This document shows, one piece after another, positions 11,673 to 34,054 of a DNA stretch of 64,000 nt (position 1 is the first letter of the stretch; every line of letters begins with the position of its first letter). The notes under the pieces are model-generated. The model did no database searches and had not been told where the DNA came from. It worked only from the letters and a program-made list of their open reading frames with translations. The translations under genes were made by a program, and so were the position numbers. The DNA comes from Pseudoleptotrichia goodfellowii (GTDB taxonomy: Bacteria > Fusobacteriota > Fusobacteriia > Fusobacteriales > Leptotrichiaceae): assembly GCF_007990505.1 (NCBI RefSeq), contig NZ_AP019822.1:1488001-1552000 (forward strand), in the 5' to 3' direction.

Positions 11673-12515
11673 TTATTTTAATTCAGTCGGTTTTAAATGA
11701 TCCATATCATCAAAAGCTATATTTTCGCCGCCCATTGCCCAAATAAATGAATAGTTGGAAGTTCCGGCTCCTGCATGTATACTCCACGAAGGACAAATTA
11801 CAGCTTCTTCATTTTTTATTACTACATTTCTTGTTTCTGTAGGCTCTCCCATAAAATGCATTACTATATTATCTTCAGGCACTTCAAAATATGTATATAT
11901 CTCCATTCTTCTTTCATGTGTATGACAAGGCATTGTATTCCATACACTTCCTTTTTCCAATATTGTCATTCCCATGGATAGTTGACATGTTTTTATTACA
12001 TCAGGGTGAATAAACTGATATATTGTTCTTTTATTTGCAGTTTCTATTGCTCCCAATTCTCTTTTGGCTGCATCTTTTATAGAAATAAATGTTGTTTCAT
12101 AAGAACAGTGAGCAGGAGCACTTATCATATAGAATTTTGCAGGTTTATCTTTATTATCACTTGTAAAATATACTTTTTTTGCTCCCTTAGTAATATAAAG
12201 ACAATCTTTATAATCCAACTCATATACTTTTTCATCAACTTCTATTTTACCTTTTCCGCCTAAGTTAAATATACCGATTTCTCTTCTTTCTAAAAAATAA
12301 TCAGTCCCGAAATTTTCCCAACTGTTTATACCTTTATCTATAGAAACTTTTTCAGTAGTAGGCATACATCCTAAAGTCACCATTCTGTCTATATGTGAAT
12401 AAACAGCTTTAATTTCATTTTCTACATACAGTTTTTCTATTAAAAATTCATTTCTTAATTCTTCCGTTGTGTATCTTTTAAAATCTTTTTGATTTACAGA
12501 ATATCTTATATCCAT
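11673..12515 (-). CDS. kduI: 5-keto-4-deoxyuronate isomerase
   Basis: 280 residues, full family length, with a metal-binding cupin core: His198, His200 and Glu205 in PCHTHERRMEIYTYFE and His247 in WSIHAG. These match the zinc ligands known for E. coli KduI with a two-residue offset. It isomerises the 4-deoxy-5-ketouronate that forms spontaneously from unsaturated glucuronate. It is followed at once by kduD and preceded by the F5/8-domain gene, all in one direction with short gaps. Identification is secure because KduI has few close relatives. Confidence 0.95.
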   Translation of the reverse strand: MDIRYSVNQKDFKRYTTEELRNEFLIEKLYVENEIKAVYSHIDRMVTLGCMPTTEKVSIDKGINSWENFGTDYFLERREIGIFNLGGKGKIEVDEKVYELDYKDCLYITKGAKKVYFTSDNKDKPAKFYMISAPAHCSYETTFISIKDAAKRELGAIETANKRTIYQFIHPDVIKTCQLSMGMTILEKGSVWNTMPCHTHERRMEIYTYFEVPEDNIVMHFMGEPTETRNVVIKNEEAVICPSWSIHAGAGTSNYSFIWAMGGENIAFDDMDHLKPTELK

Positions 12516-13421: not shown

Positions 13422-15245
13422 TTAAAATTTATTATTTATATTTACTGAGATCCTTTTATTTTCAGTTATTATAACAACCTGATTATCTTCACGTTTCACA
13501 TCGGGCTTTTGTGCAGTATTGCCTTTCGGAATACCTCCTACAATAGAAATCAAAATATGTTTTCCTTTGGATAAATTAGCTGTAAGTATCGGCAATAAAG
13601 TTCTTTCATATAAAAGATTTGTATTAGGTTCGGGTCTTATGACATCTCCTTTATCAAAGCCTTTTACTGAAAAAATTTCGCTTGTTCCAATTTTAGAAAT
13701 ATATTTTGCACTTTTACTGTCTTCAATTCGTTCTTCTTTATCATATAAATTACTGAAACCGCCTTCACAAGCAATCAAATTCCGTTCAGAATTTATTTCA
13801 TGAATACGGACATGATAATCTCCACAAGGTATAATTGTTGAATAAATTAAAACATCAGAGTAAGGTTTCCATTTACATATCAAGTAATCTTCATTTACTT
13901 CAAACATTTCATCTTTTTCTTTAGGACGAAAATACAATCCGTCTTCTGAAACAGCCAATACATTATCAAAAGCACCTTCATAATAATAATATGTTGATTT
14001 AGGCACACTAAATCCAAATACAGATGAATAAACAAATTTTGAATATTTTGCGGCACAATGAGGCTGATAATTTATACTTTGTCCGAAAGGAAACATTTGA
14101 GCATGATTACTATTACCGGTATGTACATACATGGATCTTCCGGAAACATTCAAATATTTTTCTTCGGACAGCTTTGTTTCCTTCACAACGGCTTTCCAAA
14201 AAGGATGATCATCCGGAACTGCCAATAATAAATATGATTTTAAAGCCCAATATGGAGAACCCGGAGCATTATATCCTTCTGCCATTATTAAATTTTGATA
14301 ATAATATCCTACACTTAATATACCATCTGTTGTAAAAATTTCTTTATTATACCAGCTTTCCATATTACGGACATAAAGCCCTTTTATTTGATCCCAAGGT
14401 AAAGCTTCTACATCTGCAAATACAAGTGCTGACCAAAATGCACATTGAGCAAACCTGTATGTCAGACTTCTTCCAAAAGGTATTGCATTTCCATTTTTAT
14501 CAAACATATAAGCAAAACTTTTGGCAAACTCTGCCGCTCTTTCTTTAAATAATTTTGATCTCACAGGATCATCTTCCGACATGAATACAGAATAAATCAA
14601 CCCGTAATAATGAAATGCCCAAGGTATATAGTAATCTCTTTGTGTTTTTATCCCGTCATAATACCAGCCGTTATCCACATAAAAAGAATTTATCAATTCC
14701 AAATCTTCATCTAACTTTTCTTGAGAAAATCTGACACCCATTTTTTTTAAACAAACATTGACAAGTATTCTGAAAAAATGCCAATTATTTGCAGGCATAT
14801 TATGTTCATTAATTTGTCTTAACCAATTTGCAATTTTTGTCTGTTCTTTGGCAGTTAAACGATCCCATATTTTTTCTTTATTTAACATAAATGTTACTAC
14901 TATCGAAGTCATTTCAACCAATAATTGATCATAATCCGTAACATCTCCAAAATAATCTTCATTGGTAGGATCAGTCCCTGCAACAATTCCTTTTATATAA
15001 ATATCTAACCATTTTTCTGAAGGATTTTGAGCCCAAAATGAACCCAATCCCCATAAAATTCTTAAAAAAGCTTCAATATTACGTGTATCTTTTTTATAAA
15101 CTGTTCCATGACTTCCGATATTTAAACGTCCTTTTCTATTTTTATAAAAATCTTCTAACGGACCTATTGTTTTCCATAGACTATCTTCTATTTCCTTACG
15201 TGTATTAAAATGAAAAGTTTTTCTGTCAAAACTCATTGTTATCAT
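13422..15245 (-). CDS. DUF2264 family protein (possible uronic-acid glycosidase)
   Basis: 607 residues, no signal peptide. The start (LWKTIGPLEDFYKNRKGRL, EAFLRILWGLGSFWAQ) and the helix-rich N-terminal two thirds with WLRQINEHNMPANNWHFFR and RDYYIPWAFHYYG match the DUF2264 pattern as I remember it, an alpha-barrel followed by a beta domain. From memory, related proteins include glucuronidases placed in CAZy GH154; this was not checked. It is flanked by a ROK kinase and an F5/8-domain protein within the uronate operon. It may remove a saturated uronic acid from imported fragments that GH88 cannot handle. Confidence 0.7.
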   Translation of the reverse strand: MITMSFDRKTFHFNTRKEIEDSLWKTIGPLEDFYKNRKGRLNIGSHGTVYKKDTRNIEAFLRILWGLGSFWAQNPSEKWLDIYIKGIVAGTDPTNEDYFGDVTDYDQLLVEMTSIVVTFMLNKEKIWDRLTAKEQTKIANWLRQINEHNMPANNWHFFRILVNVCLKKMGVRFSQEKLDEDLELINSFYVDNGWYYDGIKTQRDYYIPWAFHYYGLIYSVFMSEDDPVRSKLFKERAAEFAKSFAYMFDKNGNAIPFGRSLTYRFAQCAFWSALVFADVEALPWDQIKGLYVRNMESWYNKEIFTTDGILSVGYYYQNLIMAEGYNAPGSPYWALKSYLLLAVPDDHPFWKAVVKETKLSEEKYLNVSGRSMYVHTGNSNHAQMFPFGQSINYQPHCAAKYSKFVYSSVFGFSVPKSTYYYYEGAFDNVLAVSEDGLYFRPKEKDEMFEVNEDYLICKWKPYSDVLIYSTIIPCGDYHVRIHEINSERNLIACEGGFSNLYDKEERIEDSKSAKYISKIGTSEIFSVKGFDKGDVIRPEPNTNLLYERTLLPILTANLSKGKHILISIVGGIPKGNTAQKPDVKREDNQVVIITENKRISVNINNKF

Positions 15246-18485: not shown

Positions 18486-19676
18486 TTACCAATAAATTTT
18501 TAAATCCTGTTTCAAAAATCTGACTAAAGCCTCCATATAAAAGTAATCCCCCCATATACAACATTCATTTACTCCTATTCCATGAGGTTTACTATACACA
18601 GCTTCTTTTAGTAGTCCGTTAGATTCCCTCAAATCTTTTGTAGTGTATTTTTCTATGAGAGATTTCATCATATGCTTCGCAGCATTCATATATACTTTTT
18701 TGTTTTTATCAGTATCTGATAAATTTTTATCCATTTCCAGTATTCCGCAAATGGCTATTGCCGCTGCCGATGTATCTTTTTCTTCTCCCGAAGTATCATC
18801 AAAAGCAAGATCCCAGTAACAAATATCATCTTCAGGCAATTTGTTCAGGAAATAATTTGTTACTTTTTTATACAAACTTACAAACTTTTCATTTTTTAAG
18901 TATTTATAAGCTAATGGGAATCCGTAAACTCCCCATGCCTGACCTCTTGCCCATGCAGAATCGTCAGAACTTCCCTGTGCCGTACTTCCTCTTAACGGTT
19001 TTCCCGTTTCAACATCAAAATAATAAGTATGAAAAGTTGATCCGTCTTCTCTAACTACAGTTCCTGCTGCTGTATTTACATGCTTTTCGGCTATTTCTCT
19101 ATATTTTTTTTCTCCTGTAACTTCACTTGCCCAGAAGAGCAACGGTATATTGAGATTACAGTCTATTATCAATCTATGATTATCGGGATTTCCCAATACC
19201 CCCCAAGCCTGAATAAATTCTCCTTTTTCTCTGAATCTTGTTATCAAATGTTCAGCAGCCATTATTCCTGTTGTCTTGGCTTCTTCACTTTTTGTTGTTT
19301 TATACTGAGCCACAGCAGACGGTATGTACAAAAATCCCAAATCATGATGATCAACGGCATTTTTATTTTTTATTCTTTCTTTGTAACTCTTCAACTGAAA
19401 TTCAGCTACTTTTTTATATTTTTCTTCTTTTGTTATCTCATAAGCAAGCCATAGTATTCCTGTCCAGAAACCGCTTGTCCAGTCGTCCCATTCGCCTCCG
19501 TTAAGTATTCCTGGATAAATGTTATTTACACTTGCCGGTCTAGGAAATAAATTTATAAAGTATTCAATATTTTTATCTATTTTACTCAGTGCATTATGCA
19601 AAGCTCCATATAAGATTTCTTTTGAAAGTTCGATATCTTCAGAATATCTTTTTATTGTTTTTTCATTTAGTTCCAT
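18486..19676 (-). CDS. ugl: Unsaturated glucuronyl hydrolase (GH88)
   Basis: 396 residues without a signal peptide, so cytoplasmic. The alpha/alpha-barrel motifs are present: GGEWDDWTSGFWTGILWLAYE, DHHDLGF with Asp112 and IDCNLNIPLLFWAS with Asp172. Asp112 and Asp172 have the same 60-residue spacing as the catalytic pair of streptococcal UGL. It hydrates the double bond of unsaturated glycosaminoglycan disaccharides made by a lyase, freeing an amino sugar and an unsaturated uronate that passes to KduI. The gene follows a sulfatase by 14 bases. Near the C-terminus (YSKPHGIGVNE) only part of the sulfate-binding Ser/Ser/Lys set I recall from streptococcal UGL is seen, so desulfated disaccharides may be preferred. 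Confidence 0.93.
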   Translation of the reverse strand: MELNEKTIKRYSEDIELSKEILYGALHNALSKIDKNIEYFINLFPRPASVNNIYPGILNGGEWDDWTSGFWTGILWLAYEITKEEKYKKVAEFQLKSYKERIKNKNAVDHHDLGFLYIPSAVAQYKTTKSEEAKTTGIMAAEHLITRFREKGEFIQAWGVLGNPDNHRLIIDCNLNIPLLFWASEVTGEKKYREIAEKHVNTAAGTVVREDGSTFHTYYFDVETGKPLRGSTAQGSSDDSAWARGQAWGVYGFPLAYKYLKNEKFVSLYKKVTNYFLNKLPEDDICYWDLAFDDTSGEEKDTSAAAIAICGILEMDKNLSDTDKNKKVYMNAAKHMMKSLIEKYTTKDLRESNGLLKEAVYSKPHGIGVNECCIWGDYFYMEALVRFLKQDLKIYW

Positions 19677-19690
19677 ATTTTCTCCTATAT

Positions 19691-21118
19691 TTAAAACTTA
19701 AATTTATCTTTATATTTCTCAGCCCAATTTTTTAATAACTTTTCCAATTCTTCCGATAATTTATTTTCAGAACTGTCATTTAATTTTAAAGGATTCAACT
19801 GATATTCATCATTAATATTATCATATAAAAGTCTTTCAGTTTTACGACCCGGTTTATAACCTTTATTTATAACATAAGTATGAGTTTTTGTTTTTACTGC
19901 ACGCCAACCATACTCTTTATTGTCCTCATTTATTTTCTCAAATTCTTTTATTGCGGGTATTTGACCTGGGTATGATGAAATAAAAGCTTTATTTTCGTTT
20001 TTTTCCTTTTCCAGTAGTGTATTTTTAAGATCTGTACCCTCTACAGTATCAGGAACATCCAAATCCATTAATGATAATATAGTCGGCATTATATCAACAC
20101 TGCTCATTACAGTATCCGTTCTCCCTGACAAACATTTACTTCCGTATTTTATCAAAAACGGTATTCCTATAGATTCCTCATACCAGACATGTTTACTCCA
20201 TAGTCCGTGTCCGCAAAGCATTTCTCCGTGATCAGCAGTTAAAATAATTACTGTATTTTCATATAAATCGTTTTCTTTTAAATAATTTATAATTCTACCG
20301 AAATTTTCATCAATTCCTGTTATTGCAGCAAAATACTTTTTCATTACTGTTTGGTATTCCTCTTCGGTAAAATTAAGTTTTTCTTTCATGCTTTCAGTAT
20401 GATCAATTACATTTTCCAATATCACATTAGGATTTACTTTTAATTTTTTGTTATCATACATTTTTATATACTTTTCAGGTACCAGATCAAGAGGTGTATG
20501 TGGTGGATTCCATGAAACAAACAAAGAGAATGGAACATTTTTATCTTTATTTTTTTCAAGAAATTCTATAGCTTTATCAGTTTCATGCTCTACAGACCAC
20601 TTGTCCACTTCTATCATCTTTTCATCATTACTCCAATAATGAGGTTTCAAATGATTATCATATGCACCGTATGAATACCAGTAGTCAACTCCATGGCGTT
20701 TTTTCCCGGGCGGAGTATAGGCATCCCAATCTCTTGCTCCTGATACGGGATTTTCACTTTTATTCATTTCGGGACTGTCCAAATGCCATTTTCCTATATA
20801 CCCTGTATTATAGCCGTTTTTCTTTAAAATATCCGTTATTGTGACAGCATCTTCTTTCAATGCCACATCATCAAGACCTGTTTTACAGTTAGTCCATACT
20901 CCGTGAGTTATCGGATATGTTCCTGTCAGTATACTTGCTCTACTCGGAGAGCAGAGAGGACATCCGCTCACCGCATTTTCAAAAGCAAGTGCTTCTTTTG
21001 AAAACAAATCTATATTTGGAGTAATAACATCTTCTTTTTCCATAAATCCTACAGAATTTCTTCTCCATTGATCTGCAAATAAAAATAACAAATTCGGTCT
21101 ATTCATATTTTTATTCAT
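19691..21118 (-). CDS. Cytoplasmic Cys-type sulfatase (S1 family)
   Basis: 475 residues with the formylglycine motif CSPSR (Cys56) in CPLCSPSRASILTGTYP, the N-terminal metal site LFADQW and the later TADHGEMLCGHGLWSKHVW segment that ends the metal site. No signal peptide is present (MNKNMNRPNLLFLFADQ). It lies between a disaccharide-binding lipoprotein gene and the GH88 gene, so it probably removes sulfate from the imported unsaturated disaccharide before or after GH88 cleavage. Maturation needs the anSME encoded at 34331. It is clearly different from the other two sulfatases in the window. Confidence 0.93.
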   Translation of the reverse strand: MNKNMNRPNLLFLFADQWRRNSVGFMEKEDVITPNIDLFSKEALAFENAVSGCPLCSPSRASILTGTYPITHGVWTNCKTGLDDVALKEDAVTITDILKKNGYNTGYIGKWHLDSPEMNKSENPVSGARDWDAYTPPGKKRHGVDYWYSYGAYDNHLKPHYWSNDEKMIEVDKWSVEHETDKAIEFLEKNKDKNVPFSLFVSWNPPHTPLDLVPEKYIKMYDNKKLKVNPNVILENVIDHTESMKEKLNFTEEEYQTVMKKYFAAITGIDENFGRIINYLKENDLYENTVIILTADHGEMLCGHGLWSKHVWYEESIGIPFLIKYGSKCLSGRTDTVMSSVDIMPTILSLMDLDVPDTVEGTDLKNTLLEKEKNENKAFISSYPGQIPAIKEFEKINEDNKEYGWRAVKTKTHTYVINKGYKPGRKTERLLYDNINDEYQLNPLKLNDSSENKLSEELEKLLKNWAEKYKDKFKF

Positions 21119-21142: not shown

Positions 21143-22717
21143 CTATTTTTTCGTAAATCTTTTATACGCTTCCAGTTGTATTTTTTCAGCCTTTGCCAGT
21201 CCTATATCATTTAATCTTTTTATATAACTGTCCCAGTCTTTATCTACATCAGAAACTCCCATTATCCATTTTTGAGACATTTCTTCCACATAAGAATTTA
21301 ATTGTGTATTTATTTTTATAAATTCTTTAGATTCATCTTTTGTGTATTTTAATATAGGCATTAGTTCATGAACATAATTATTTTTCAAATAAAAATCTAT
21401 TGCATCAACAGCTTCTTTTACATACCATTGTTTTTCATATTCGGAATCCTGAGGCATTCCCAATCTGAATTGTGCTCCCGATTCTCTGATTACAGCTAAA
21501 GGAGTTTTCCCTTGAGAATTTTTCAATATTTTATCTGTAAATACAGGTTTTCCGTCTACCAATTTATAATCATCACCTTCAATACCGAAATTCCATAGTC
21601 TTCTTCCTTCAGGAGAGTACCAGAAATCAAAATATTTTATGGCTTCTACGACATTTTTGGATTTTGAGCTTATTCCCCAGCCTCCTAAGTATGTAGTTCT
21701 TGCCTGATATGTTTTATTATCTCCGTTAAATGTTGCAGGTGCTATTATTCCGAAATCAAATCCCTGTATTGTTTTACCAAGTTTATTGTTATAAGAGCTT
21801 GTACTTCCGAACCAGTCTATTGTAAAACCTCCCAAGTTATTGGAAAGCATGTAATCTCTTGCGTTAATTCCTCTTGTAAAAATTTCTTTATCAATTAATC
21901 CTTCTTTATACCATTTTGCCAACTGTTTCATAGCTTCTTTGTATTCAGCCTGTGCAGGTCCGAATTTTACTGCATCTTTATCATCATACCAGAAAGCTCT
22001 CGCCTTAAATATATCAGCTAAAGGTTGTAAAACTTTTGCTACAGTATCTCCTCTACTAAATAAAGGTACTTCGTCTTTTTTTCCGTTTCCGTTAGGATCT
22101 TTATCTCTGAAAGCTACAAGCACATTATATAAATCATCTGTTGTTACAGGATCTTTCAAATTCAATTTTTTTATCCAGTCTTTTCTTATATAATAACCTG
22201 TAGACGGCATAAAATTAAAATAATCATAATAGTTAGGTATCATATAAATATGTCCGTCAGCTGCTATTGCATCCTGTTTGTATCTCGGATTTTCTTCCCA
22301 GAATTTTTTAATATTCGGAGCATATTTATCTATTAAATCTTCTAATGGAACAAGCCCTCCGTCTATTCCCAATCCTTCCAAATCTTCAGTAAATTCATAA
22401 GCAACTATATCAGGTAATTCTCCTGAAGATACAAGTAAATTATATGCTTCTTTCTGATCTGTCTGATTTTGTGATGCTACATTTTTCAATTTTATATTTG
22501 TCATTTCGGCTGCTTTTTTATACACAGGTGCATCAGGATTTAAAGCTTTTCCCAAATGAATAGCAAAAACTGTCAGTTCTTTAGGATTTTCTGAAATTAA
22601 ATGACCTTCCAATTTTTTACCGCTATCTTTGTTATCTCCTTTTGACTGTGATTTTCCACAGGCAACCAATAATATTGCTATAATTAACAATAAATAAGTA
22701 ATTTTCTTTTTCATCAT
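21143..22717 (-). CDS. Glycosaminoglycan-disaccharide-type ABC substrate-binding lipoprotein, copy 1
   Basis: 524 residues with a lipoprotein signal (ILLVACGKS, Cys20). It contains the calcium-binding loop DKDPNGNGKKDEVP typical of long binding proteins for acidic oligosaccharides (AlgQ type) and of the Streptobacillus moniliformis protein Smon0123, which binds unsaturated chondroitin and hyaluronan disaccharides. It is roughly two-thirds identical by eye to the protein at 29479. It follows the PL8 lyase gene by 17 bases and precedes a sulfatase. The only matching permeases are at 31093 and 32015, so both binding proteins probably feed one transporter and may differ in sulfation preference. 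Confidence 0.9.
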   Translation of the reverse strand: MMKKKITYLLLIIAILLVACGKSQSKGDNKDSGKKLEGHLISENPKELTVFAIHLGKALNPDAPVYKKAAEMTNIKLKNVASQNQTDQKEAYNLLVSSGELPDIVAYEFTEDLEGLGIDGGLVPLEDLIDKYAPNIKKFWEENPRYKQDAIAADGHIYMIPNYYDYFNFMPSTGYYIRKDWIKKLNLKDPVTTDDLYNVLVAFRDKDPNGNGKKDEVPLFSRGDTVAKVLQPLADIFKARAFWYDDKDAVKFGPAQAEYKEAMKQLAKWYKEGLIDKEIFTRGINARDYMLSNNLGGFTIDWFGSTSSYNNKLGKTIQGFDFGIIAPATFNGDNKTYQARTTYLGGWGISSKSKNVVEAIKYFDFWYSPEGRRLWNFGIEGDDYKLVDGKPVFTDKILKNSQGKTPLAVIRESGAQFRLGMPQDSEYEKQWYVKEAVDAIDFYLKNNYVHELMPILKYTKDESKEFIKINTQLNSYVEEMSQKWIMGVSDVDKDWDSYIKRLNDIGLAKAEKIQLEAYKRFTKK

Positions 22718-22734
22718 TTATTCCACCTTTATTT

Positions 22735-25098
22735 TCAAATTTTTTTTAAATTTATAACAACTGATTTCCCTTGATTTACAAGATTTACTTTTATTTCTGT
22801 TTTTCCATTTTTAACATTTAATTTTACACTGTTATTTTGAGATAAAAGACTGTATTCTCCATCCAGTTCTATTATTGTCTCATATTTGGAAAGTTGTGTA
22901 GGATCACTTACTGCAAGAATAATTTCATTTCCTTTTTCTGTTTTTACTATTGAAATAGGAGAAACTGCTTTAATACCTGCAATTGTTATTTCTTTACTTC
23001 CCCAAAAATTTATTCCTGTAATTTTTCTCTGTTTATCTTCTATCGCATGTACATCATTATCCATACGTATGATTTTAATATTATCCTCGTTATAATTTTT
23101 TACTTCTTCTTCACTGAACATCGGTAAAACTATATATGCATATTTAGAATCTTTAGGATTTTTTCCATGCTCTGCATATACTTTAAAATATGTCTTTTCT
23201 TTTATATCCTGAGATTTCCCTCCTATTTCTTTCCAGCTTCCTTTTCTTTTTTCAATATTGATTGTTAAAATAGGAGTATTCAAAATTTTATATCCGATAT
23301 TTTCATTTGTTTTTTTATCTGTAAAATTTATGTAAGTTCCTTTTGTTCCCGGTACTTTTTTTATTCCTGTTACTGTTCCACCGTTTACAGTTATTTTTTT
23401 ATCATTTATATCGTTTATTATTTTATTATCCAATGTTGTATGAATTTCTCCATCACTACTGGAAATACCCGAACCTAAAGCTACTATTTCCTCTCCGAGC
23501 ATAAACCACGACTTTTTGGCAACAGTTTTATTATTCCATGATATAAAATCCATTCCTATCATTGCCGACTTACCGTCCGTAGCTCCTCCTGCCCATGAAT
23601 TAGGCGATACCGCTGAAGGAAGTCTTCTTTCTCCCGAACCTAAACCTCTATCATTTGTACTTTCAGTTGTTCCGGATAAATGAAGATTATCAACTGTTTC
23701 CCAAAAATCAACATAATCCGACGAAGAAATTCCGTAAATATAAGTCATTCCATCTCCGGTATGCCATCCTTTCAGATTTTCCCCGTTCATTGTTTCATAG
23801 TTGGCTATTCTTGAAGAATGCATTGAAACGAGAAATTTTCCATTTTTTTTATTTACCTGAACAGCTCTGTCCATTGAAGAAAATATTTTTGTTCCTGACA
23901 TTTCTTCTATTTTTATATTACTGTTTTCAACAATATTTTTTATAATTCTTTTTATTACAGGATTATTAATTTTTTCTACAACATTGAAAAAATTATTTTC
24001 CAGTACGCTTTTCTTTACCAGTTTTTTTATTTCTTCTTTATAAGGCGATTCAACACCTTCGGAAATTATTGCAAAAGCTGCTATTAACGATTTTCCTCTT
24101 TCCAGATCATTGGAATTATCTCTCGATATGGATCTTCCGCTGACCGAGTCATTTATTCCGCCGTTTATCATTAAATAACTGTATCCTTTTGTAATTGATT
24201 TATAAAGATTTTCCAGTCTCGGATCCTTAGGAAAAAAAACTGTTCCCTCAGAAACATAAAGTAAAGTACCCAATCCGTTAAACAATACACTTGCATAAGT
24301 TCCGCTGTATGCTACATTTTCATGCTGTATAAAAGAACCGTCTGAATAAAATCCGTCTTCATTTGTAACGATTTCTCCGATTTCTCCGACCGCATTTACT
24401 CCGTTCATTGTTTCAACTTTATCTTTTGTCAACACTCCTCTTCCGAATGAGATAATTGCCGTATCCATTCTGTTTCCGCCTTTGGAAACTCTCTTATTGG
24501 GAGAAGTCGAATATTTTGCTGCAGGGCTTGATCCCGAATGGGTAGCATAAGGCTGAAAATATTTTGAAGCATTCATCAAATTAATTAACAGACTTTGAGG
24601 AATTTCTCCGTACATTATTATTCCTATTTCATTTACACTTTTAGGAATACCTATTTCCCACTGCCACCAGTTTCCGAGCTCGTCCAATCCTTCATGATAA
24701 GCATTTTTATTAAGCCATTCCAATGATTCGGTTATTGTTTTTTTCAAATCCTTATTTTTATAATATTTTGTTCCCGGCATCATATAAGCTTTTGCCATAG
24801 CTTTTACATTCTGAAATGAACTTAATATATGTGCACCGTTTTTCATATCTTTCAAATCATTAAATAAACTTTTTTTATCTTCTTCTTTATTAAGTTTTTC
24901 TATTGCTTTTTCCGCATCTTTTTCTATCTGTGATACGTATTTGCCCATATTTTTATCAGTTCGACCGTTATTTTCTTCAGGCAGTCCGACAATTATTTCA
25001 AACCATTTTTTTCTTATTTTGTCAAATTCATTTTTTTGAGTTATACCCGAAGAAATTGAAGCTATAATCATCATCATTAAAAGTACTGTATTTTTCAA
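22735..25098 (-). CDS. Secreted polysaccharide lyase family 8 (hyaluronate/chondroitin lyase)
   Basis: 787 residues with an N-terminal signal peptide (about 1-20) and no surface anchor. It has the alpha-toroid and beta-sandwich layout of PL8. Key sites: aromatic patch NWWQWEIG (143-150), catalytic Asn209 in GGNRMDT, catalytic His259 and Tyr268 in IQHENVAYSGTY, and Arg322/Arg326 in GRSISR. The Asn/His/Tyr pattern and the nine-residue His-Tyr spacing match the pneumococcal hyaluronate lyase. It beta-eliminates chondroitin or hyaluronan to unsaturated disaccharides in the periplasm or outside. It sits between the autotransporter and a disaccharide-binding protein. Confidence 0.94.
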   Translation of the reverse strand: MKNTVLLMMMIIASISSGITQKNEFDKIRKKWFEIIVGLPEENNGRTDKNMGKYVSQIEKDAEKAIEKLNKEEDKKSLFNDLKDMKNGAHILSSFQNVKAMAKAYMMPGTKYYKNKDLKKTITESLEWLNKNAYHEGLDELGNWWQWEIGIPKSVNEIGIIMYGEIPQSLLINLMNASKYFQPYATHSGSSPAAKYSTSPNKRVSKGGNRMDTAIISFGRGVLTKDKVETMNGVNAVGEIGEIVTNEDGFYSDGSFIQHENVAYSGTYASVLFNGLGTLLYVSEGTVFFPKDPRLENLYKSITKGYSYLMINGGINDSVSGRSISRDNSNDLERGKSLIAAFAIISEGVESPYKEEIKKLVKKSVLENNFFNVVEKINNPVIKRIIKNIVENSNIKIEEMSGTKIFSSMDRAVQVNKKNGKFLVSMHSSRIANYETMNGENLKGWHTGDGMTYIYGISSSDYVDFWETVDNLHLSGTTESTNDRGLGSGERRLPSAVSPNSWAGGATDGKSAMIGMDFISWNNKTVAKKSWFMLGEEIVALGSGISSSDGEIHTTLDNKIINDINDKKITVNGGTVTGIKKVPGTKGTYINFTDKKTNENIGYKILNTPILTINIEKRKGSWKEIGGKSQDIKEKTYFKVYAEHGKNPKDSKYAYIVLPMFSEEEVKNYNEDNIKIIRMDNDVHAIEDKQRKITGINFWGSKEITIAGIKAVSPISIVKTEKGNEIILAVSDPTQLSKYETIIELDGEYSLLSQNNSVKLNVKNGKTEIKVNLVNQGKSVVINLKKI

Positions 25099-25112: not shown

Positions 25113-28100
25113 CTAAAAACTGTAATTTATACCTATACTGGGTTTAAACACATGATTTCTCGTTTTTTCTCCGTATTTACTGCTTTTTTCATCTGTGTTT
25201 TTTACTTTTATCTCGGATATTGCCAAAGAAGCAAATATGTTAAGTCCCGGTACTATTCCTTTATTATATTTTATGCCGTATCGGTACTCATATACTTCGG
25301 ATTTTCTTTCTTTTGTTTCTGCAGTTTCATACCATGCTCCTTTTCCTAATGGCAATCTCAAGTCAAAGGTTACGCTGTCTCCATTACCGAAATTATAAAT
25401 TACTGACGATCTCAGCTGCTCAGAAACGTATTTTCTTACATTATTTTTACTGTCAAATCTTCTGTCATCTCTAAAATACATCAGTTGAAGCTTCCACTTA
25501 GGCGAGAACCCGTTATACACAAATCCGTACTGATTTTCTACCTTATAGTCAACTTGATTCTTTCTTTCTCCTTTATAATAAAAATCAATCATTCCTGTAG
25601 TTTTTCCTGTAAAATAGAGTCCGTTACCTAAATTATAAGAAATATTTCCATCCAATTTCAGTTCATGAAATCCCGACTTTGACACATAATAATCTTTTTT
25701 AGGATAATTTTTCGGTTTTTTCAGATTTTCAATTTTATATCCTATACTGAATCCGTAGTTTCCTTTGGAAAAAGTATTTCTGTATCTCATTTCTGCCATC
25801 AGACGACTTGAAGATATAATGTCTTCCCTTGAACTTTTCCCTTGAAACATACTGTTATTTTTATAATATCCTTCAAAATAATAAGAAATCTTTGATTTTG
25901 TATCTGACAAAGTCAACCATACCAGCGGTTTATAATCTGCAGATTTTGAATAATCTCCTGAAGATAATATATTTCCGTAATAATACGCTCTGTCCGAAGG
26001 ATCTTCAGCTTCAAGGGTAAATCCTAATGTCTTTTTCCATCTTGAATTTTTTCTGCTGTTACTCAATTTTGCAACAATACTGTTAAATATATTATTTTTG
26101 AAAATGTTTCCTTTATATTCAAAACCGAGTGTGATTTTATCGGATTTATATTCTTTTCCTTTGACATGTTTATAATTTGCAGTTATTGCCAGATTTTCAG
26201 TTAATCCTAAAACAGTATCTATATTATAAAAAAATACATTTTTCATGTTTGCAGATTTTACTTTATGTTCATTATTTAATCCCTGCAATTTATAATATTT
26301 GAATTTATTTATATTTCCTGTTTCAGTTTCATATCCTGCACCTATTCCGAATCTGTAAACTTTGTTAAACAGAAGTCCTGCCTTTTCAAAGTTTATCCCT
26401 ATGGACGGTACCACTGAATTATAGTATTTTTCATTTACAGGGCTATTTTTTATTGTCAAATTACTTGCCCGTGAAGGTAATTCCTCACGATTTTCATTTA
26501 TGTTTCCCTGAAATACCCTTTTAAAACCTATTCCTCCGTAAATCGATACTTTAAATATATTTTTTTCTATCGGAGTATAAATTATTTTTGAATCGGCTCC
26601 CAATGTAATTACAGGATAACTCGAATTAAATTTATAATTTTGATTACCGATATTAATTTCTCTTTTAATCGAAGCATGAGAATACGTTGTTCCTACCGTT
26701 GTCAAAAATGAAATTTTATTATTTAAGTTATAATTATAGTAACCTCCGAAATAAACTGTTTCCAAATGTGCATTTCCTGCATTATTCTTCTTAAAATTCA
26801 AATCTCCTTTGGAAGCTCCGTAAATAAATCCTAACTTATTATCATTGATAATCTGCTTTTCCCATATTCCTGCTACTCCTTTTTCTTTACGTTCTGCTTC
26901 TATTGTGCCCGATAAATTTCCTGTATCGTTTATATAAAAAATGTTATGTGTTACCGAATTTAAAGGACTGTTTCTTGTAATGTCTCTCGAAAATACTTTT
27001 TTTAAACTTAAATCTTTGAATAATTCCGATTCTTGTAAAACCGAGTCAATAACATAAGAATGTACAACACCTGAAATTTGAGCTAAAGCATTATTAAAAT
27101 CTTCTTTATTTTTTAACATTTCCATTTTTCCTATAACTTTATCCAAATCTCCGTTCGTTTTGTTTGCATTTCGCTCAGCTTCCAAATATTCTGCAAAGTC
27201 GTTCAAATTTTTATTTCTGTTCACATCGGAATATCTATTTTTACTAAGCACTACATCGGTATTTCCTTTTTTTCTGTATGCCCATACTAATGTATCCTCA
27301 AATTTTGCCTGACTTCCGTCTACTTTTATTCCTCCAAGATATTCAGAAGTAGAAAATTCTTTACCTTCTCCTTTGAACAATAAACTTATTTTCCCTTTTA
27401 ATATTATCTGATTACCGTTTACATATATAGGAGTACTATCCGCTTTATTTAAAGTCAATGTTGAATCTTCCAATGTCAAAGTTCCCGTTCGGTTACTTAT
27501 GTAACTTTCTCTTTCCAAAGATTTTTTTATGTCTTCTGAATATTTTTGGGCATTTTCATGACTTTCCAGTGATATTTCGGAATTTTTAATATAAGAATTT
27601 CCGATTAAATTCAATGAATTGTATTTTTTAACATTTATCCTGTCAATATTAGCATTTTCAAGAAACAAAGTATCTATTCCTGTATTTCCGATAATATTAC
27701 CGTTTACAGAATTTCTATTTTTCAATACAACAGTATTATTTGTTAAAGGCTTTGATATTACAGCATTTCCCTTTTCATCTCCGATAATTTTCCCTGTGTC
27801 ATTTATAAAAATCGAATTTGAAAGACTTATTCCTGTTGTAGTTCTATTTTTTAAAAGAATTTCTCCTTTATTTATACCTATTCCGTTTTTTTCTATTTTT
27901 ATTCCGGTACCTTCATTTATCTTTATTTTTCCGGCTTCAGAATTTATTCCGAAGGAATTTTCTCCTACAGCTATTCCCGAAGAAAGTTTTCCGCTTAATA
28001 CTTCTATTTCTCCTTTATTTTCTATCGTCCCTTTCATTTGAGATACAGCAGCATTTGAAGTATTTTTTTCATCTCCCTTATGAACTATTTTTCCTGCATT

Positions 28101-29444
28101 TGTAAGCTGAGAATTTTCACCTGAAGCTTTTATTCCTGTTGTATATTTTCCTGCATCAACTTCTACAAGCCCTGTTGTTGTAATTTTTCTATTGTCATTC
28201 GCCTGTATTCCCGTACTTTTATCTCCCGAAACAAAAATATTTCCTTTATTTATTACATTTCCATTTTCAGTTTCACTACTTTCTTTAACAGCAACAATTC
28301 CTGTCGCACCTTCTGAAACATAAATTTTCCCGTTTTCACTATTTTCAAAATTTGCATTTCCTGCAGCCTGTATTCCGTAACTTTCTCCTGACGCTTTTAT
28401 CACACCGGTATTTACAGTTTTTTCTATCGGAACCGTATTTGTTTTCAGTATATTGATTCCGACAGATTTTCCGTCTGCATTTATAGTACCGCTATTTGTA
28501 AAATAACCTTTAGATATAACTCCTATCCCGTTATTATCAGCATTTATAATCCCAAAATTCAAAGCATTTCCATTTTGGTTGTTTATAAATATACCTTTGG
28601 CATTATATCCGCTGTAAGGATTTTTACCTGTTCCTTTAACATTTATTATTCCATAGTTTTCAAAAGAATTTTTATCTTCGGAATTTATATTTACTCCGAT
28701 TGCCTCGGATCCTGATGTCAATCTATTATTAGAAAATACATTTATTTGACCTTCATTTTTGAAAAATACTTTATTTTCCAAAGAAACTCCCGTTGCTTTA
28801 TCTCTTACTTCTATTACACCGTTATGATAAGAAGTTATATTGGCTTTTTTATTTTTATTTCCTGTTATTCCGATACTTTCTTGCCCTGTAACATTTATTT
28901 TCGCGTAATTCTCAAACTTTGAATTATTATAATTTAAAAATATTCCTTTTGCTTTATTTCCTACAGAAATTTCTCCTTTATTTTCCAATTCGGCAGTATT
29001 TGTAACGTTTATTCCTACTCCTTTAGCTCCTGAAATTTCAAGTATTCCTTCATTTCTGAATTTTCCTTTTTGAATGGAAATCAGCTCAAAATTAAAATTA
29101 CTTTTATTCTTTCCTTTAATAATTCCACGATTTATAACAAAATTATTATTTGTAATTCCGGAATTTATATTTATAATTTTCTTATTTTTGTTTTGAGAAT
29201 ACTCAATATCTATATTAACAGGACTGTCTGTATCCTCTTTTCCCAACAATATAGCATATTTTCCAGGTTGAATACTTATTACCGTATCCCCGTTCAAATC
29301 ATTCGGAGTTATAATTTTATTGGTTATCAAATGATTTCTTCGGGGATCAGTATTGTTGTTCTGATCAGGATATAATGTCGCATGTCCCTGATTACACATT
29401 AATATTGCTAAAAGTATGAAAAGTGACAATTTATTTTTCTTCAT
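25113..29444 (-). CDS. Autotransporter with a second, OmpG-like beta-barrel at the C-terminus
   Basis: 1443 residues. Signal peptide 1-22. Residues about 95-580 are a repetitive beta-helix passenger with repeating N-x-G-x-I and x-G-I-x motifs, followed by a linker to about 800. Residues about 850-1115 look like an ordinary autotransporter barrel (VYFGGYYNYNLNNKISFLTT and on to KITLGFEYKGNIF). A further 310 residues follow (about 1135-1443). They are again amphipathic beta strands and end in GINYSF, and they resemble the E. coli porin OmpG (DDRRFDSKNN, LRLPLGKGAWYE, terminal NYSF). The start has a duplicated ribosome-site unit. It lies in the GAG operon between PL8 and a binding protein. It may tether or bind polymer and provide a pore. 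Confidence 0.85.
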   Translation of the reverse strand: MKKNKLSLFILLAILMCNQGHATLYPDQNNNTDPRRNHLITNKIITPNDLNGDTVISIQPGKYAILLGKEDTDSPVNIDIEYSQNKNKKIININSGITNNNFVINRGIIKGKNKSNFNFELISIQKGKFRNEGILEISGAKGVGINVTNTAELENKGEISVGNKAKGIFLNYNNSKFENYAKINVTGQESIGITGNKNKKANITSYHNGVIEVRDKATGVSLENKVFFKNEGQINVFSNNRLTSGSEAIGVNINSEDKNSFENYGIINVKGTGKNPYSGYNAKGIFINNQNGNALNFGIINADNNGIGVISKGYFTNSGTINADGKSVGINILKTNTVPIEKTVNTGVIKASGESYGIQAAGNANFENSENGKIYVSEGATGIVAVKESSETENGNVINKGNIFVSGDKSTGIQANDNRKITTTGLVEVDAGKYTTGIKASGENSQLTNAGKIVHKGDEKNTSNAAVSQMKGTIENKGEIEVLSGKLSSGIAVGENSFGINSEAGKIKINEGTGIKIEKNGIGINKGEILLKNRTTTGISLSNSIFINDTGKIIGDEKGNAVISKPLTNNTVVLKNRNSVNGNIIGNTGIDTLFLENANIDRINVKKYNSLNLIGNSYIKNSEISLESHENAQKYSEDIKKSLERESYISNRTGTLTLEDSTLTLNKADSTPIYVNGNQIILKGKISLLFKGEGKEFSTSEYLGGIKVDGSQAKFEDTLVWAYRKKGNTDVVLSKNRYSDVNRNKNLNDFAEYLEAERNANKTNGDLDKVIGKMEMLKNKEDFNNALAQISGVVHSYVIDSVLQESELFKDLSLKKVFSRDITRNSPLNSVTHNIFYINDTGNLSGTIEAERKEKGVAGIWEKQIINDNKLGFIYGASKGDLNFKKNNAGNAHLETVYFGGYYNYNLNNKISFLTTVGTTYSHASIKREINIGNQNYKFNSSYPVITLGADSKIIYTPIEKNIFKVSIYGGIGFKRVFQGNINENREELPSRASNLTIKNSPVNEKYYNSVVPSIGINFEKAGLLFNKVYRFGIGAGYETETGNINKFKYYKLQGLNNEHKVKSANMKNVFFYNIDTVLGLTENLAITANYKHVKGKEYKSDKITLGFEYKGNIFKNNIFNSIVAKLSNSRKNSRWKKTLGFTLEAEDPSDRAYYYGNILSSGDYSKSADYKPLVWLTLSDTKSKISYYFEGYYKNNSMFQGKSSREDIISSSRLMAEMRYRNTFSKGNYGFSIGYKIENLKKPKNYPKKDYYVSKSGFHELKLDGNISYNLGNGLYFTGKTTGMIDFYYKGERKNQVDYKVENQYGFVYNGFSPKWKLQLMYFRDDRRFDSKNNVRKYVSEQLRSSVIYNFGNGDSVTFDLRLPLGKGAWYETAETKERKSEVYEYRYGIKYNKGIVPGLNIFASLAISEIKVKNTDEKSSKYGEKTRNHVFKPSIGINYSF

Positions 29445-29478: not shown

Positions 29479-31044
29479 TTATTTTTTCATAAATCTTGCA
29501 TAAGCTGTTTTTTGTATTTCTTCAGCTCTTTTTAAGCCTATCTCGTTTAATCTTTTTACATAGTTATCCCAGTCTTTTTGTACATCTGAAACACCAAGTA
29601 TCCATTTTTGAGTCATTTCTTCAGTATACGCTCTTAATTGAGTGTCTATTTTCAAAAATTCTTTTGCTTCTTCTTTTGTATATTTCAATACAGGTAAATC
29701 ATCTTCTATTACATTGGATTTTATATATAAATCTACTGCCTCAGTTTGTCCCGATAATTGTTTTTCAGCTTCTGCATCCTGGAACATACCCAATCTGTAT
29801 TGTGCTCCTGTTGATCTTATTACTGCTAAAGGATTTTTTCCTTGAGGATCTTTTAATATTTTATCTGTAAATACAGGTTTTCCATCTACCATTTTGTAGT
29901 CTTCGCCTTCTATTCCGAAGTTCCAAAGTCTTCTTCCCGCTTCAGAATACCAGAAATCAAAATATTTTATCAATTCAACAGGATTTTTTGCTGCCGATGT
30001 TATTCCCCAACCTCCAATATATGTAGGTCTTACAAAAAATGTTTTATTATTTCCTTTATATTCAGGCGGTAACATAATTGAAAGATCAAATCCCGGTATT
30101 TTTGATGCTAATTTGTCATTATAAGTTCCTGTACTTGAAAACCAGTCATTTGTAAATCCTCCCAAATTATTGGAAAGCATGTAATCTCTCGAATTCATTC
30201 CTCTTGTAAATACTTCTTTATCTATAAGTCCTTCTTTATACCATTTTGCTAACTGTATCATTGCTTCTTTATAATTTTCCTGTGCAGGACCGAACTGTGG
30301 AGTTCCTTTATCATCATACCAAACTGCTCTCGCTTTAAATATATCAGTTAATCCCATCATTATTTTTCTTATTATATTTCCTCTTAAGAACAACGGTACT
30401 TCATCTTTTTTACCGTTCCCGTTAGGGTCTTTATCTCTGAAAGCCACAAGTACATTGTATAATTCATCTACTGTTTTAGGCTCCTGAAGATTTAATTTTT
30501 TCAACCAGTCTTTTCTTATGTAATATCCTTGAGTAGTTTTCAAATTAAAGTAATCATTATAATTAGGTATCATATATATATGCCCGTCAGCTGCTATTGC
30601 ATCTTTTTTGTATCTCGGATTTTCTTCAAAAAACTTTTTTATATTCGGAGCATGTTTATCTATCAAATCCTCCAAAGGAATAAGTCCGCCTTCCATTCCC
30701 AAATTTTCAAAATCCGAAACAAGTTCATATGCTACAATGTCCGGCAATTTCCCTGAAGAAAGCATTAAATTAAATCCCTGTACTTCATCACTTTGATTTT
30801 TTGAAGCTACACTTACAAGTTTTATATTTGTTTCTTCAAAAGCTTTTTTAAACACCGGCAATTCTCCGTCTATGGCTTTCCCTTGGAAAATAGCAAATAT
30901 CGTTACTTCTCTCGGTTTTTCCGTTATCAGATTTCCTGATAATTTTTTTCCGTTTCCTCCGTCCGAAGCAGATTTTTCATTTTTGCACGCTAATATAGCT
31001 GTTAAACAAATTAAAGTCATAATCAAAATCTTTTTTACTTTCAT
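29479..31044 (-). CDS. Glycosaminoglycan-disaccharide-type ABC substrate-binding lipoprotein, copy 2
   Basis: 521 residues; lipoprotein signal with Cys20 (LTAILACKN), low-complexity linker and the same Ca-loop DKDPNGNGKKDEVP as the paralog at 21143. It directly follows its two permeases, the gene order of LplB-LplC-LplA type importers, so this is the dedicated binding protein. By analogy with Smon0123 of Streptobacillus moniliformis it should bind unsaturated disaccharides from chondroitin or hyaluronan. Conserved blocks include DIVAYEL, PLEDLIDK, ADGHIYMIPNY and YYIRKDWLKKL. Confidence 0.92.
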   Translation of the reverse strand: MKVKKILIMTLICLTAILACKNEKSASDGGNGKKLSGNLITEKPREVTIFAIFQGKAIDGELPVFKKAFEETNIKLVSVASKNQSDEVQGFNLMLSSGKLPDIVAYELVSDFENLGMEGGLIPLEDLIDKHAPNIKKFFEENPRYKKDAIAADGHIYMIPNYNDYFNLKTTQGYYIRKDWLKKLNLQEPKTVDELYNVLVAFRDKDPNGNGKKDEVPLFLRGNIIRKIMMGLTDIFKARAVWYDDKGTPQFGPAQENYKEAMIQLAKWYKEGLIDKEVFTRGMNSRDYMLSNNLGGFTNDWFSSTGTYNDKLASKIPGFDLSIMLPPEYKGNNKTFFVRPTYIGGWGITSAAKNPVELIKYFDFWYSEAGRRLWNFGIEGEDYKMVDGKPVFTDKILKDPQGKNPLAVIRSTGAQYRLGMFQDAEAEKQLSGQTEAVDLYIKSNVIEDDLPVLKYTKEEAKEFLKIDTQLRAYTEEMTQKWILGVSDVQKDWDNYVKRLNEIGLKRAEEIQKTAYARFMKK

Positions 31045-32974: not shown

Positions 32975-34054
32975 TTATTTTACTGTCAAACCTATATTCA
33001 GTCCTGCTCTTACTTCATTAGTTTCTGTTGTTCTTTTATATCCGTAATTTTTTAATCCTCTATTATTTTTATCTTTCAGTGTTGCTCTTTGTAAAACTCT
33101 GTATTTTACAAAAGGACTTATTGATACTTTTCCTACTCCTGTTTCAAAGCTTTTTGAATATCCCAACTCTGTCCATACAGAAATTGTATTTTTATATCCT
33201 GTTTTAGCAGTATGTTTTTCCCATTCATTATCTGCAGAAATACTTCCTGTAAATCCTGCAAATGTCGGAGTAGTATATTTTATTCCTGCTACATATACTA
33301 ATTTAACACTTGATTTTGCTTCTTTTCCTGTAGCGGCAATTTTACCGTGGGGATCTCTGAATTTATTTTTTAAATCTATCCAGTAATTTACTTTTCCTAC
33401 TTTTCCCTGATAAATATTTCCGTTTGTTCTGAATCTTGCATTTAATCCCCAACCGTCAGTCTTTCCTCCTTCAAATCCTGAACCGCTTAAATAATATTCT
33501 CCGTTTTTTTCTCCGTTACTTTTAAAGTATACTGCCTCTAAAGTAGTAGTAATATTTTGTCCGAAAAGTTTCATTCCGAATGTAGGCCCGAAATATATTT
33601 CATTGGAAATCCCTGCTGTTTTTTTCGATTCATTCTTTTTATATTTCATAGAAGATTTATGTAACCATCCTAAAGTTGTCGTTGTTTCCAAATTTCCTAT
33701 ATTGATTTTTTTGCTGAATTCCAAATTATTTTCCCACGATTCTTTTTTTATATTGTTTCTTTTTCCTTTTTGGAAAGTACTGTCATTATCATGTATAATA
33801 TTAAATTTAGAATCGATTCCCCACTCATCGGATAATTTCAATTCTCCTGAAACAATATTTCTCCATCTTGCAAAAGTTTTATTATTGGATTTAAAGCCTG
33901 CATTTCCTATATTATTTGCTTCATTTCCGTCTTTATCTGTCCATGCCTGTCTATACTCAGTAGTTACTCTGATATTTTTAAGTACATCCTGATTTCCGTA
34001 CACCACACCTGAAATTACAGTCATTAAAGCTGTTAATCCTATAATCTTTTTCAT
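32975..34054 (-). CDS. Outer-membrane beta-barrel protein, oligosaccharide porin-like
   Basis: 359 residues with a signal peptide (cleavage after about residue 20, VVYGN). The rest is alternating polar and aromatic residues in about 12-16 predicted strands (IRVTTEYRQAW, ISVWTELGYSKSF and similar), like KdgM/OmpG-type porins. It ends in Lys rather than Phe, unusual for an outer-membrane barrel, although the last strand (EVRAGLNIGLTVK) is amphipathic. As first gene of the unit with the disaccharide ABC importer it probably lets lyase products through the outer membrane. Confidence 0.75.
   Translation of the reverse strand: MKKIIGLTALMTVISGVVYGNQDVLKNIRVTTEYRQAWTDKDGNEANNIGNAGFKSNNKTFARWRNIVSGELKLSDEWGIDSKFNIIHDNDSTFQKGKRNNIKKESWENNLEFSKKINIGNLETTTTLGWLHKSSMKYKKNESKKTAGISNEIYFGPTFGMKLFGQNITTTLEAVYFKSNGEKNGEYYLSGSGFEGGKTDGWGLNARFRTNGNIYQGKVGKVNYWIDLKNKFRDPHGKIAATGKEAKSSVKLVYVAGIKYTTPTFAGFTGSISADNEWEKHTAKTGYKNTISVWTELGYSKSFETGVGKVSISPFVKYRVLQRATLKDKNNRGLKNYGYKRTTETNEVRAGLNIGLTVK

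What the first reader, a model, noticed from the sequence alone, without database searches (positions are those of the whole stretch)
25113..29444. Autotransporter fused to a second OmpG-like beta-barrel inside a GAG operon
The protein has a beta-helix passenger and a normal-size autotransporter barrel (about 850-1115). A further 310 residues of amphipathic strands then end in NYSF and look like OmpG. An autotransporter barrel is normally the end of the chain. Two barrels in one polypeptide beside a secreted PL8 lyase and a disaccharide importer would join a surface adhesin or binder to an oligosaccharide pore.
Basis: partly seen in the sequence, partly recalled or inferred. Interest (0 to 1): 0.75.

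Follow-up and report, generated by a model that had tools for sequence, protein, structure and literature searches.

The report
Double-barrel surface protein beside hyaluronan lyase
A bacterial surface protein carries two membrane barrels in one chain, one that exports a surface arm and one that looks like a sugar pore, and its gene always sits next to the gene for an enzyme that cuts host hyaluronan or chondroitin, so it may be the missing doorway by which these bacteria take up those sugars.

Summary
Confirmed and extended. Window 25113-29444 (minus strand) encodes a 1443-aa protein: signal-peptide-like start, repeat-rich passenger, complete autotransporter barrel (PF03797, closing near residue 1111), then 332 more residues. 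The genome's other ten autotransporter chains end 19-21 aa after the same Pfam match; this one runs on. The extra domain has no direct Pfam or PDB sequence hit, but is homologous to a stand-alone 340-aa protein that passes the OmpG-porin Pfam cut-off. A low-confidence AlphaFold2 model has 14 strands, and its nine best PDB matches are all OmpG. The joint model of both barrels failed, so 'two barrels' rests on sequence.

The domain occurs in 13 Fusobacteriota genomes (15 copies): always as the chain's end behind an autotransporter barrel, always 8-26 bp upstream of a PL8 lyase gene, never in a genome without PL8. Two species keep both barrels but lack the passenger. In otherwise near-identical loci the barrel protein and PL8 were replaced together. 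The second barrel is basic in every copy measured. Best reading: an outer-membrane capture and uptake protein for glycosaminoglycans (GAGs), a step described in the literature as an 'unknown channel/transporter'. Architecture is well supported; function is inferred.

The parts
25113..29444 (-). Whole gene, 1443-aa two-barrel autotransporter-type protein
   Evidence: full-length orthologues
29379..29444 (-). Signal-peptide-like N-terminus, residues 1-22 (MKKNKLSLFILLAILMCNQGHA)
   Evidence: sequence itself; no dedicated predictor was available
27045..29378 (-). Passenger, residues 23 to about 800, repeat-rich, beta-helix-like; length varies strongly in relatives and it is missing in two
   Evidence: repeat counts against shuffles; domain comparison
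26112..26861 (-). Autotransporter barrel, Pfam match residues 862-1091, inferred closing strand to about 1111 (SDKITLGFEYKG)
   Evidence: PF03797 48.5 bits; end inferred from the other autotransporters of the genome
26037..26111 (-). Linker between the barrels, residues about 1112-1136, with a predicted short helix
   Evidence: AF2 model, low confidence
25116..26036 (-). OmpG-like second barrel, residues about 1137-1443, 14 predicted strands, ends NYSF
22735..25098 (-). PL8 polysaccharide lyase, next gene downstream (14-bp gap), the constant partner of the two-barrel gene
   Evidence: Pfam PF08124/PF02278/PF02884; PDB relatives hyaluronate, chondroitin AC and xanthan lyases; pairing
29479..31044 (-). 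Solute-binding protein of the GAG disaccharide ABC importer, next gene upstream
   Evidence: Smon0123 structures 5xs8/5gub about 725 bits
31093..32929 (-). Two ABC permease subunits
   Evidence: PF00528
18486..22717 (-). Second solute-binding protein (21143-22717), sulfatase (19691-21118), GH88 unsaturated glucuronyl hydrolase (18486-19676)

Best explanation
It is an outer-membrane protein with two beta-barrels in one chain. The first is a classical type Va autotransporter barrel that puts a beta-helix arm on the surface. The second is a 14-strand OmpG-like, basic barrel joined to it by a short periplasmic linker. It works with the adjacent PL8 lyase in uptake of hyaluronan or chondroitin. Proposed steps: the surface arm (where present) captures or holds the polymer; the second barrel is the water-filled channel that lets GAG chains or lyase products cross the outer membrane; PL8 makes unsaturated disaccharides; the Smon0123-type ABC transporter imports them. 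SHOWN: the domain order, its conservation, the constant pairing and joint replacement with PL8, the importer relationship, the basic character of the second barrel. INFERRED: closure as two separate barrels, channel activity, substrate, and whether PL8 acts outside or in the periplasm.
For: Autotransporter barrel complete to profile end and alone in its genome in not ending the chain. The second domain matches the stand-alone 340-aa protein P0004 (profile search 4.6e-10; hhalign 3.7e-9, probability 96, against controls at 0.01-0.08; phmmer 1.0e-7). P0004 passes the OmpG-porin family PF16946 (25.3 bits, cut-off 23). AF2 gives 14 strands, and the nine best PDB fold matches are all OmpG (1.1e-6 to 2.7e-3). 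The domain is in 13 of 24 PL8-bearing and 0 of 74 PL8-less Fusobacteriota genomes (Fisher 5e-10). All 15 copies lie directly upstream of PL8, gap 8-26 bp. Identities of domain and PL8 track each other (r 0.93, permutation p 0.0005). In G042/G037 against G044/G038 the flanking GAG genes are 87-100% identical, while the two-barrel protein (30%) and PL8 (44%) were replaced together. In those two species (G044, G038) the protein keeps both barrels without a passenger. The second barrel is net positive in 14 of 14 copies, while the first barrel is net zero or negative in 10 of 12 and PF16946 porins range from -7 to +5. The outer-membrane step is recorded as unknown (PMC5430744).
Against: The joint structure model failed (pLDDT 28.5) and the single-domain model is weak (pLDDT 52.7, TM about 0.3-0.4). 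No Pfam or PDB sequence hit for the domain itself. Eleven PL8-bearing genomes lack it, so it is not required for PL8 as such. In G056 only its last codons remain beside a PL8 gene. The locus here also holds a separate porin-like protein (32975-34054), although sister loci do not. Conserved charges on the predicted strands are of both signs. Joint inheritance of adjacent genes can also come from linkage alone. No functional data.
Confidence: 0.55

Rival explanations
1. One merged barrel: the 12 autotransporter strands and the 14 C-terminal strands close together as a single wide pore of about 26 strands.
For: Two species lack a passenger, which would leave a pure barrel protein. The joint AF2 run does not exclude it.
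Against: The first barrel matches PF03797 to its end and has its own closing-strand motif. The second has a stand-alone homologue with its own signal-peptide-like start and best resembles a closed 14-strand OmpG. A linker with a predicted helix separates them.
Confidence: 0.1
2. Adhesin or GAG binder only: the passenger does the work and the second barrel is an accessory anchor or stabiliser without transport.
For: Beta-helix passengers are often adhesins (general knowledge); passengers here are long and variable. A GAG binder beside a GAG lyase would make sense.
Against: The passenger is the variable part and is absent in two species, while both barrels and the PL8 link remain. The second barrel is as conserved as the first or slightly more (40-46% against 36-40% outside the genus).
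Confidence: 0.2
3. Lyase export or display device: the two-barrel protein helps bring PL8 to the surface, in the manner of two-partner secretion.
For: PL8 starts with a signal-peptide-like stretch without a lipobox (sequence) and needs a way out if it acts outside; the pair is inherited and replaced together.
Against: The second barrel resembles OmpG, a small-molecule porin, and no POTRA or TpsB-type domain was found. Eleven genomes have PL8 without it.
Confidence: 0.12
4. Accidental fusion with no shared function: neighbouring autotransporter and porin genes were fused in an ancestor and persist neutrally.
For: A related stand-alone barrel gene still sits next to the two-barrel gene in G068.
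Against: Kept in four genera of two families down to about 25% identity, never found split, and held beside PL8 in all 15 copies.
Confidence: 0.03

Closest known systems
GfcD/YjbH double-barrel outer-membrane proteins (polysaccharide export; Solan et al. 2021 as cited in PMC8592465, PMC9603273, PMC11494523)
   Same: Two barrels in one chain, the first of 12 strands, in a polysaccharide-handling operon
   Different: GfcD has a periplasmic domain between the barrels, a 13-strand second barrel and no autotransporter passenger; it is linked to capsule export, not GAG uptake
Type Va autotransporters (PF03797)
   Same: Signal-peptide-like start, beta-helix-like passenger, PF03797 barrel
   Different: The chain continues for about 332 residues after the barrel; two relatives have no passenger
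OmpG porins (PF16946; E. coli OmpG structures)
   Same: Predicted 14 strands, best fold matches, transitive sequence homology
   Different: No direct Pfam hit; fused behind an autotransporter barrel in all 15 copies; basic and Arg-rich
Streptobacillus moniliformis GAG import cluster Smon0117-Smon0127 (PMC5430744)
   Same: Same type of SBP, permeases, PL8, sulfatase and UGL; the paper also names a Leptotrichia goodfellowii cluster
   Different: Outer-membrane channel unknown there; four loci of genus g11 (by gene order Streptobacillus-like) lack the two-barrel gene and have an unrelated 684-760-aa basic, probably outer-membrane protein instead

Membership tests
Type Va autotransporter | PF03797 beta-domain | tested here: met
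   48.5 bits, cut-off 26, to profile end
Type Va autotransporter | Repeat-rich beta-helix-like passenger N-terminal to the barrel | tested here: met
   Repeat motif 8 times against shuffle mean 0.3; no solved relative
Type Va autotransporter | Barrel ends the chain | tested here: not met
   352 residues follow the match; 19-21 in the other ten of the genome
Type Va autotransporter | Passenger exposed on the surface | not testable with these tools
   needs experiment
OmpG porin family | Direct match to an OmpG family model | tested here: not met
   No Pfam OmpG hit in any of 14 members; homology only through P0004
OmpG porin family | 14-strand barrel fold | tested here: inconclusive
   14 strands, OmpG the best nine fold matches, but pLDDT 52.7 and TM about 0.3-0.4
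OmpG porin family | Pore activity | not testable with these tools
   needs bilayer or liposome assay
Multi-barrel outer-membrane proteins | Two barrel domains in one chain | tested here: inconclusive
   Sequence says yes; the joint model failed
Fusobacterial GAG utilisation locus | Smon0123-like SBP, ABC permeases, PL8, GH88, sulfatase | tested here: met

The most novel reading that the evidence does not exclude
A single-chain GAG acquisition machine of Fusobacteriota, analogous in role to SusCD but unrelated to it: an autotransporter-displayed arm catches the polymer, the linked basic OmpG-like barrel brings chains or large fragments into the periplasm, and a co-inherited PL8 partner cuts them there. 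It would be the missing outer-membrane step of GAG import and a first passenger-plus-porin protein.
Probability: 0.3. Interest if true: 0.8.

Novelty: new variant of a known kind. Interest (0 to 1): 0.62.

Why it matters
How GAG disaccharides cross the outer membrane of Fusobacteriota is stated as unknown in the paper that defined the inner-membrane importer (PMC5430744). This gives one concrete, conserved candidate to knock out. It also adds an autotransporter-plus-porin type to the small set of outer-membrane proteins with two barrels in one chain, and poses a clear folding question: how the barrel assembly machinery inserts two different barrels, one with a passenger to export, from one polypeptide.

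Tried and rejected
Joint AF2 model of residues 790-1443 with a two-row alignment: useless (pLDDT 28.5). Search of viral contigs and plasmids for the second domain: nothing. Pfam, NCBIfam and PDB sequence searches with the domain or its profile: nothing. Direct profile comparison with four PF16946 porins: weak (0.0014, probability 17.5), not used as proof. Streptobacillus-like 684-760-aa protein as a relative of either barrel: no. A frameshift or mis-assembly as the source of the fusion: rejected by full-length orthologues. Promoter scan of the region: no more sites than chance, not used. The source paper on multi-barrel proteins (10.1073/pnas.2104059118) is not held, so whether it lists this family could not be checked.

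Full report
WHAT IS THERE. The finding's coordinates hold one open frame on the minus strand, 1443 aa. It begins with a signal-peptide-like stretch (MKKNKLSLFILLAILMCNQGHA, read from the sequence). Residues 23 to about 800 are rich in Gly/Asn repeats: N-x-G-x-I-x-[VIA] occurs 8 times against a shuffle mean of 0.3. Pfam finds PF03797 at 862-1091, to profile position 254 of 255, and nothing after it. Of the eleven PF03797 proteins in this genome, ten end 19-21 residues after the match; this one runs on for 352. By analogy with those, the first barrel closes near residue 1111, and 332 residues follow.

THE EXTRA DOMAIN. Two sister species have full-length orthologues at 70-71% identity, with the tail at 74%. 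A profile of the tail finds it in 12 genomes and a broader profile finds it over the full domain in 13 Fusobacteriota genomes, 15 copies, from four genera of two families. A further weak end-fragment in G056 (0.018) is the last about 20 codons of a lost copy, lying just upstream of its PL8 gene. The same search found, at 4.6e-10, a stand-alone 340-aa protein (P0004) encoded in the same GAG locus of G068. hhalign gives the pair E 3.7e-9 and probability 96, against 0.01 for the autotransporter barrel, 0.057 for the window's other porin-like protein, and 0.08 between the autotransporter barrel and OmpG-type porins. P0004 passes PF16946 (OmpG porin) at 25.3 bits, cut-off 23. Single-sequence search links it to other PF16946 proteins at about 7e-7 and to the two-barrel protein of G068 at 1.0e-7. 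AF2 of residues 1101-1443 with one relative gives 14 strands at mean pLDDT 52.7. Foldseek's nine best PDB matches are all E. coli OmpG, E 1.1e-6 to 2.7e-3, ahead of every other barrel. TM-scores are only 0.3-0.4, so this supports but does not prove the fold; AF2 may also have drawn on known OmpG structures.

ONE BARREL OR TWO. The joint model failed. Two barrels are favoured because each part has complete relatives of its own: ordinary chain-ending autotransporter barrels for the first, P0004 for the second. Even strand numbers (12 by family, 14 predicted) would put all ends in the periplasm, which fits a tandem arrangement (inference).

COUPLING TO PL8. All 15 copies found lie immediately upstream of a PL8 lyase gene on the same strand, with gaps of 8-26 bp. 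PL8 occurs in 24 of 98 Fusobacteriota genomes, and the domain in 13 of those and in none of the other 74 (Fisher 5e-10; species are related, so this p-value is too small). Pairwise identities of second domain and PL8 correlate at r 0.93 (permutation p 0.0005). Four species of one genus give a natural test: UGL, SBP, permease and sulfatase are 84-100% identical among all four, yet G044 and G038 carry a different two-barrel/PL8 pair (about 30% and 43-45% identical to that of G042 and G037), in inverted orientation relative to the sulfatase and transport genes. In these two species the protein is 632 aa: signal-peptide-like start, about 55 residues, PF03797 barrel, second barrel, no passenger. 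So the constant core is two barrels plus PL8, and the passenger is optional.

CHEMISTRY. The second barrel is net positive in 14 of 14 aligned copies (+3 to +24, 17-29 Arg), while the first barrel is net zero or negative in 10 of 12 and four PF16946 porins range from -7 to +5. Conserved charges on predicted strands are of both signs, so this is consistent with, not proof of, a polyanion pore.

CONTEXT. The upstream SBP matches Smon0123 structures at about 725 bits; PL8 matches hyaluronate, chondroitin AC and xanthan lyases; GH88, sulfatase and permeases are confirmed by Pfam. [quoted passage not shown] The genome size (2,290,729 bases) and family suggest that species or a close one, which is an inference. 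Where the two-barrel gene is missing, four loci of genus g11 (Streptobacillus-like by gene order) have a 684-760-aa basic protein after UGL, and G001 a 452-aa one, both with barrel-like ends. The former is unrelated to either barrel by profile comparison; the latter was not compared by profile.

MECHANISM. Best reading: the protein is the outer-membrane capture and entry component of GAG uptake, the second barrel being the channel. Shown: architecture in sequence, conservation, coupling. Inferred: fold closure, transport, substrate, site of PL8 action. Rivals are a merged barrel, an adhesin with an extra anchor, a PL8 export aid, and a neutral fusion.

NOVELTY. Outer-membrane chains with two barrels are a known, mostly predicted kind; the best studied is GfcD/YjbH in capsule operons (PMC8592465, PMC9603273, PMC11494523). 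An autotransporter barrel followed by an OmpG-like barrel, tied to a GAG lyase, was not found in the papers searched, but the main catalogue paper is not held. Hence 'new variant of a known kind'.

Noticed in passing
L080 (G056) 12253-12324: Only the last about 20 codons of a two-barrel gene remain just upstream of PL8; PTS-type genes now sit there, as if the outer-membrane gene was lost when the import system changed.
   Followed up: partly
L084 13597-15675 and counterparts in L083, L085, L086: Streptobacillus-like GAG loci carry a 684-760-aa strongly basic, probably outer-membrane protein after UGL, with no Pfam family and no link to either barrel; a candidate for the unknown channel there.
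   Followed up: partly
L029 9606-11504; L081 11697-13595: Passenger-less 632-aa version: autotransporter barrel and OmpG-like barrel alone, next to PL8.
   Followed up: yes
L119 321-1523 (minus); L129 1501-2715: Two other fusobacterial autotransporter barrels are followed by an OmpA-family peptidoglycan-binding domain (PF00691), another case of a barrel that does not end the chain.
   Followed up: partly
window 32975-34054: Stand-alone 359-aa porin-like protein upstream of the permeases; one of three copies in the genome and absent from the GAG locus of two sister species.
   Followed up: partly
window 13422-15245: 607-aa protein in the same gene run with no NCBIfam match and only weak PDB similarity over residues 50-356 to glucuronate dehydratase-type enzymes.
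   Followed up: no
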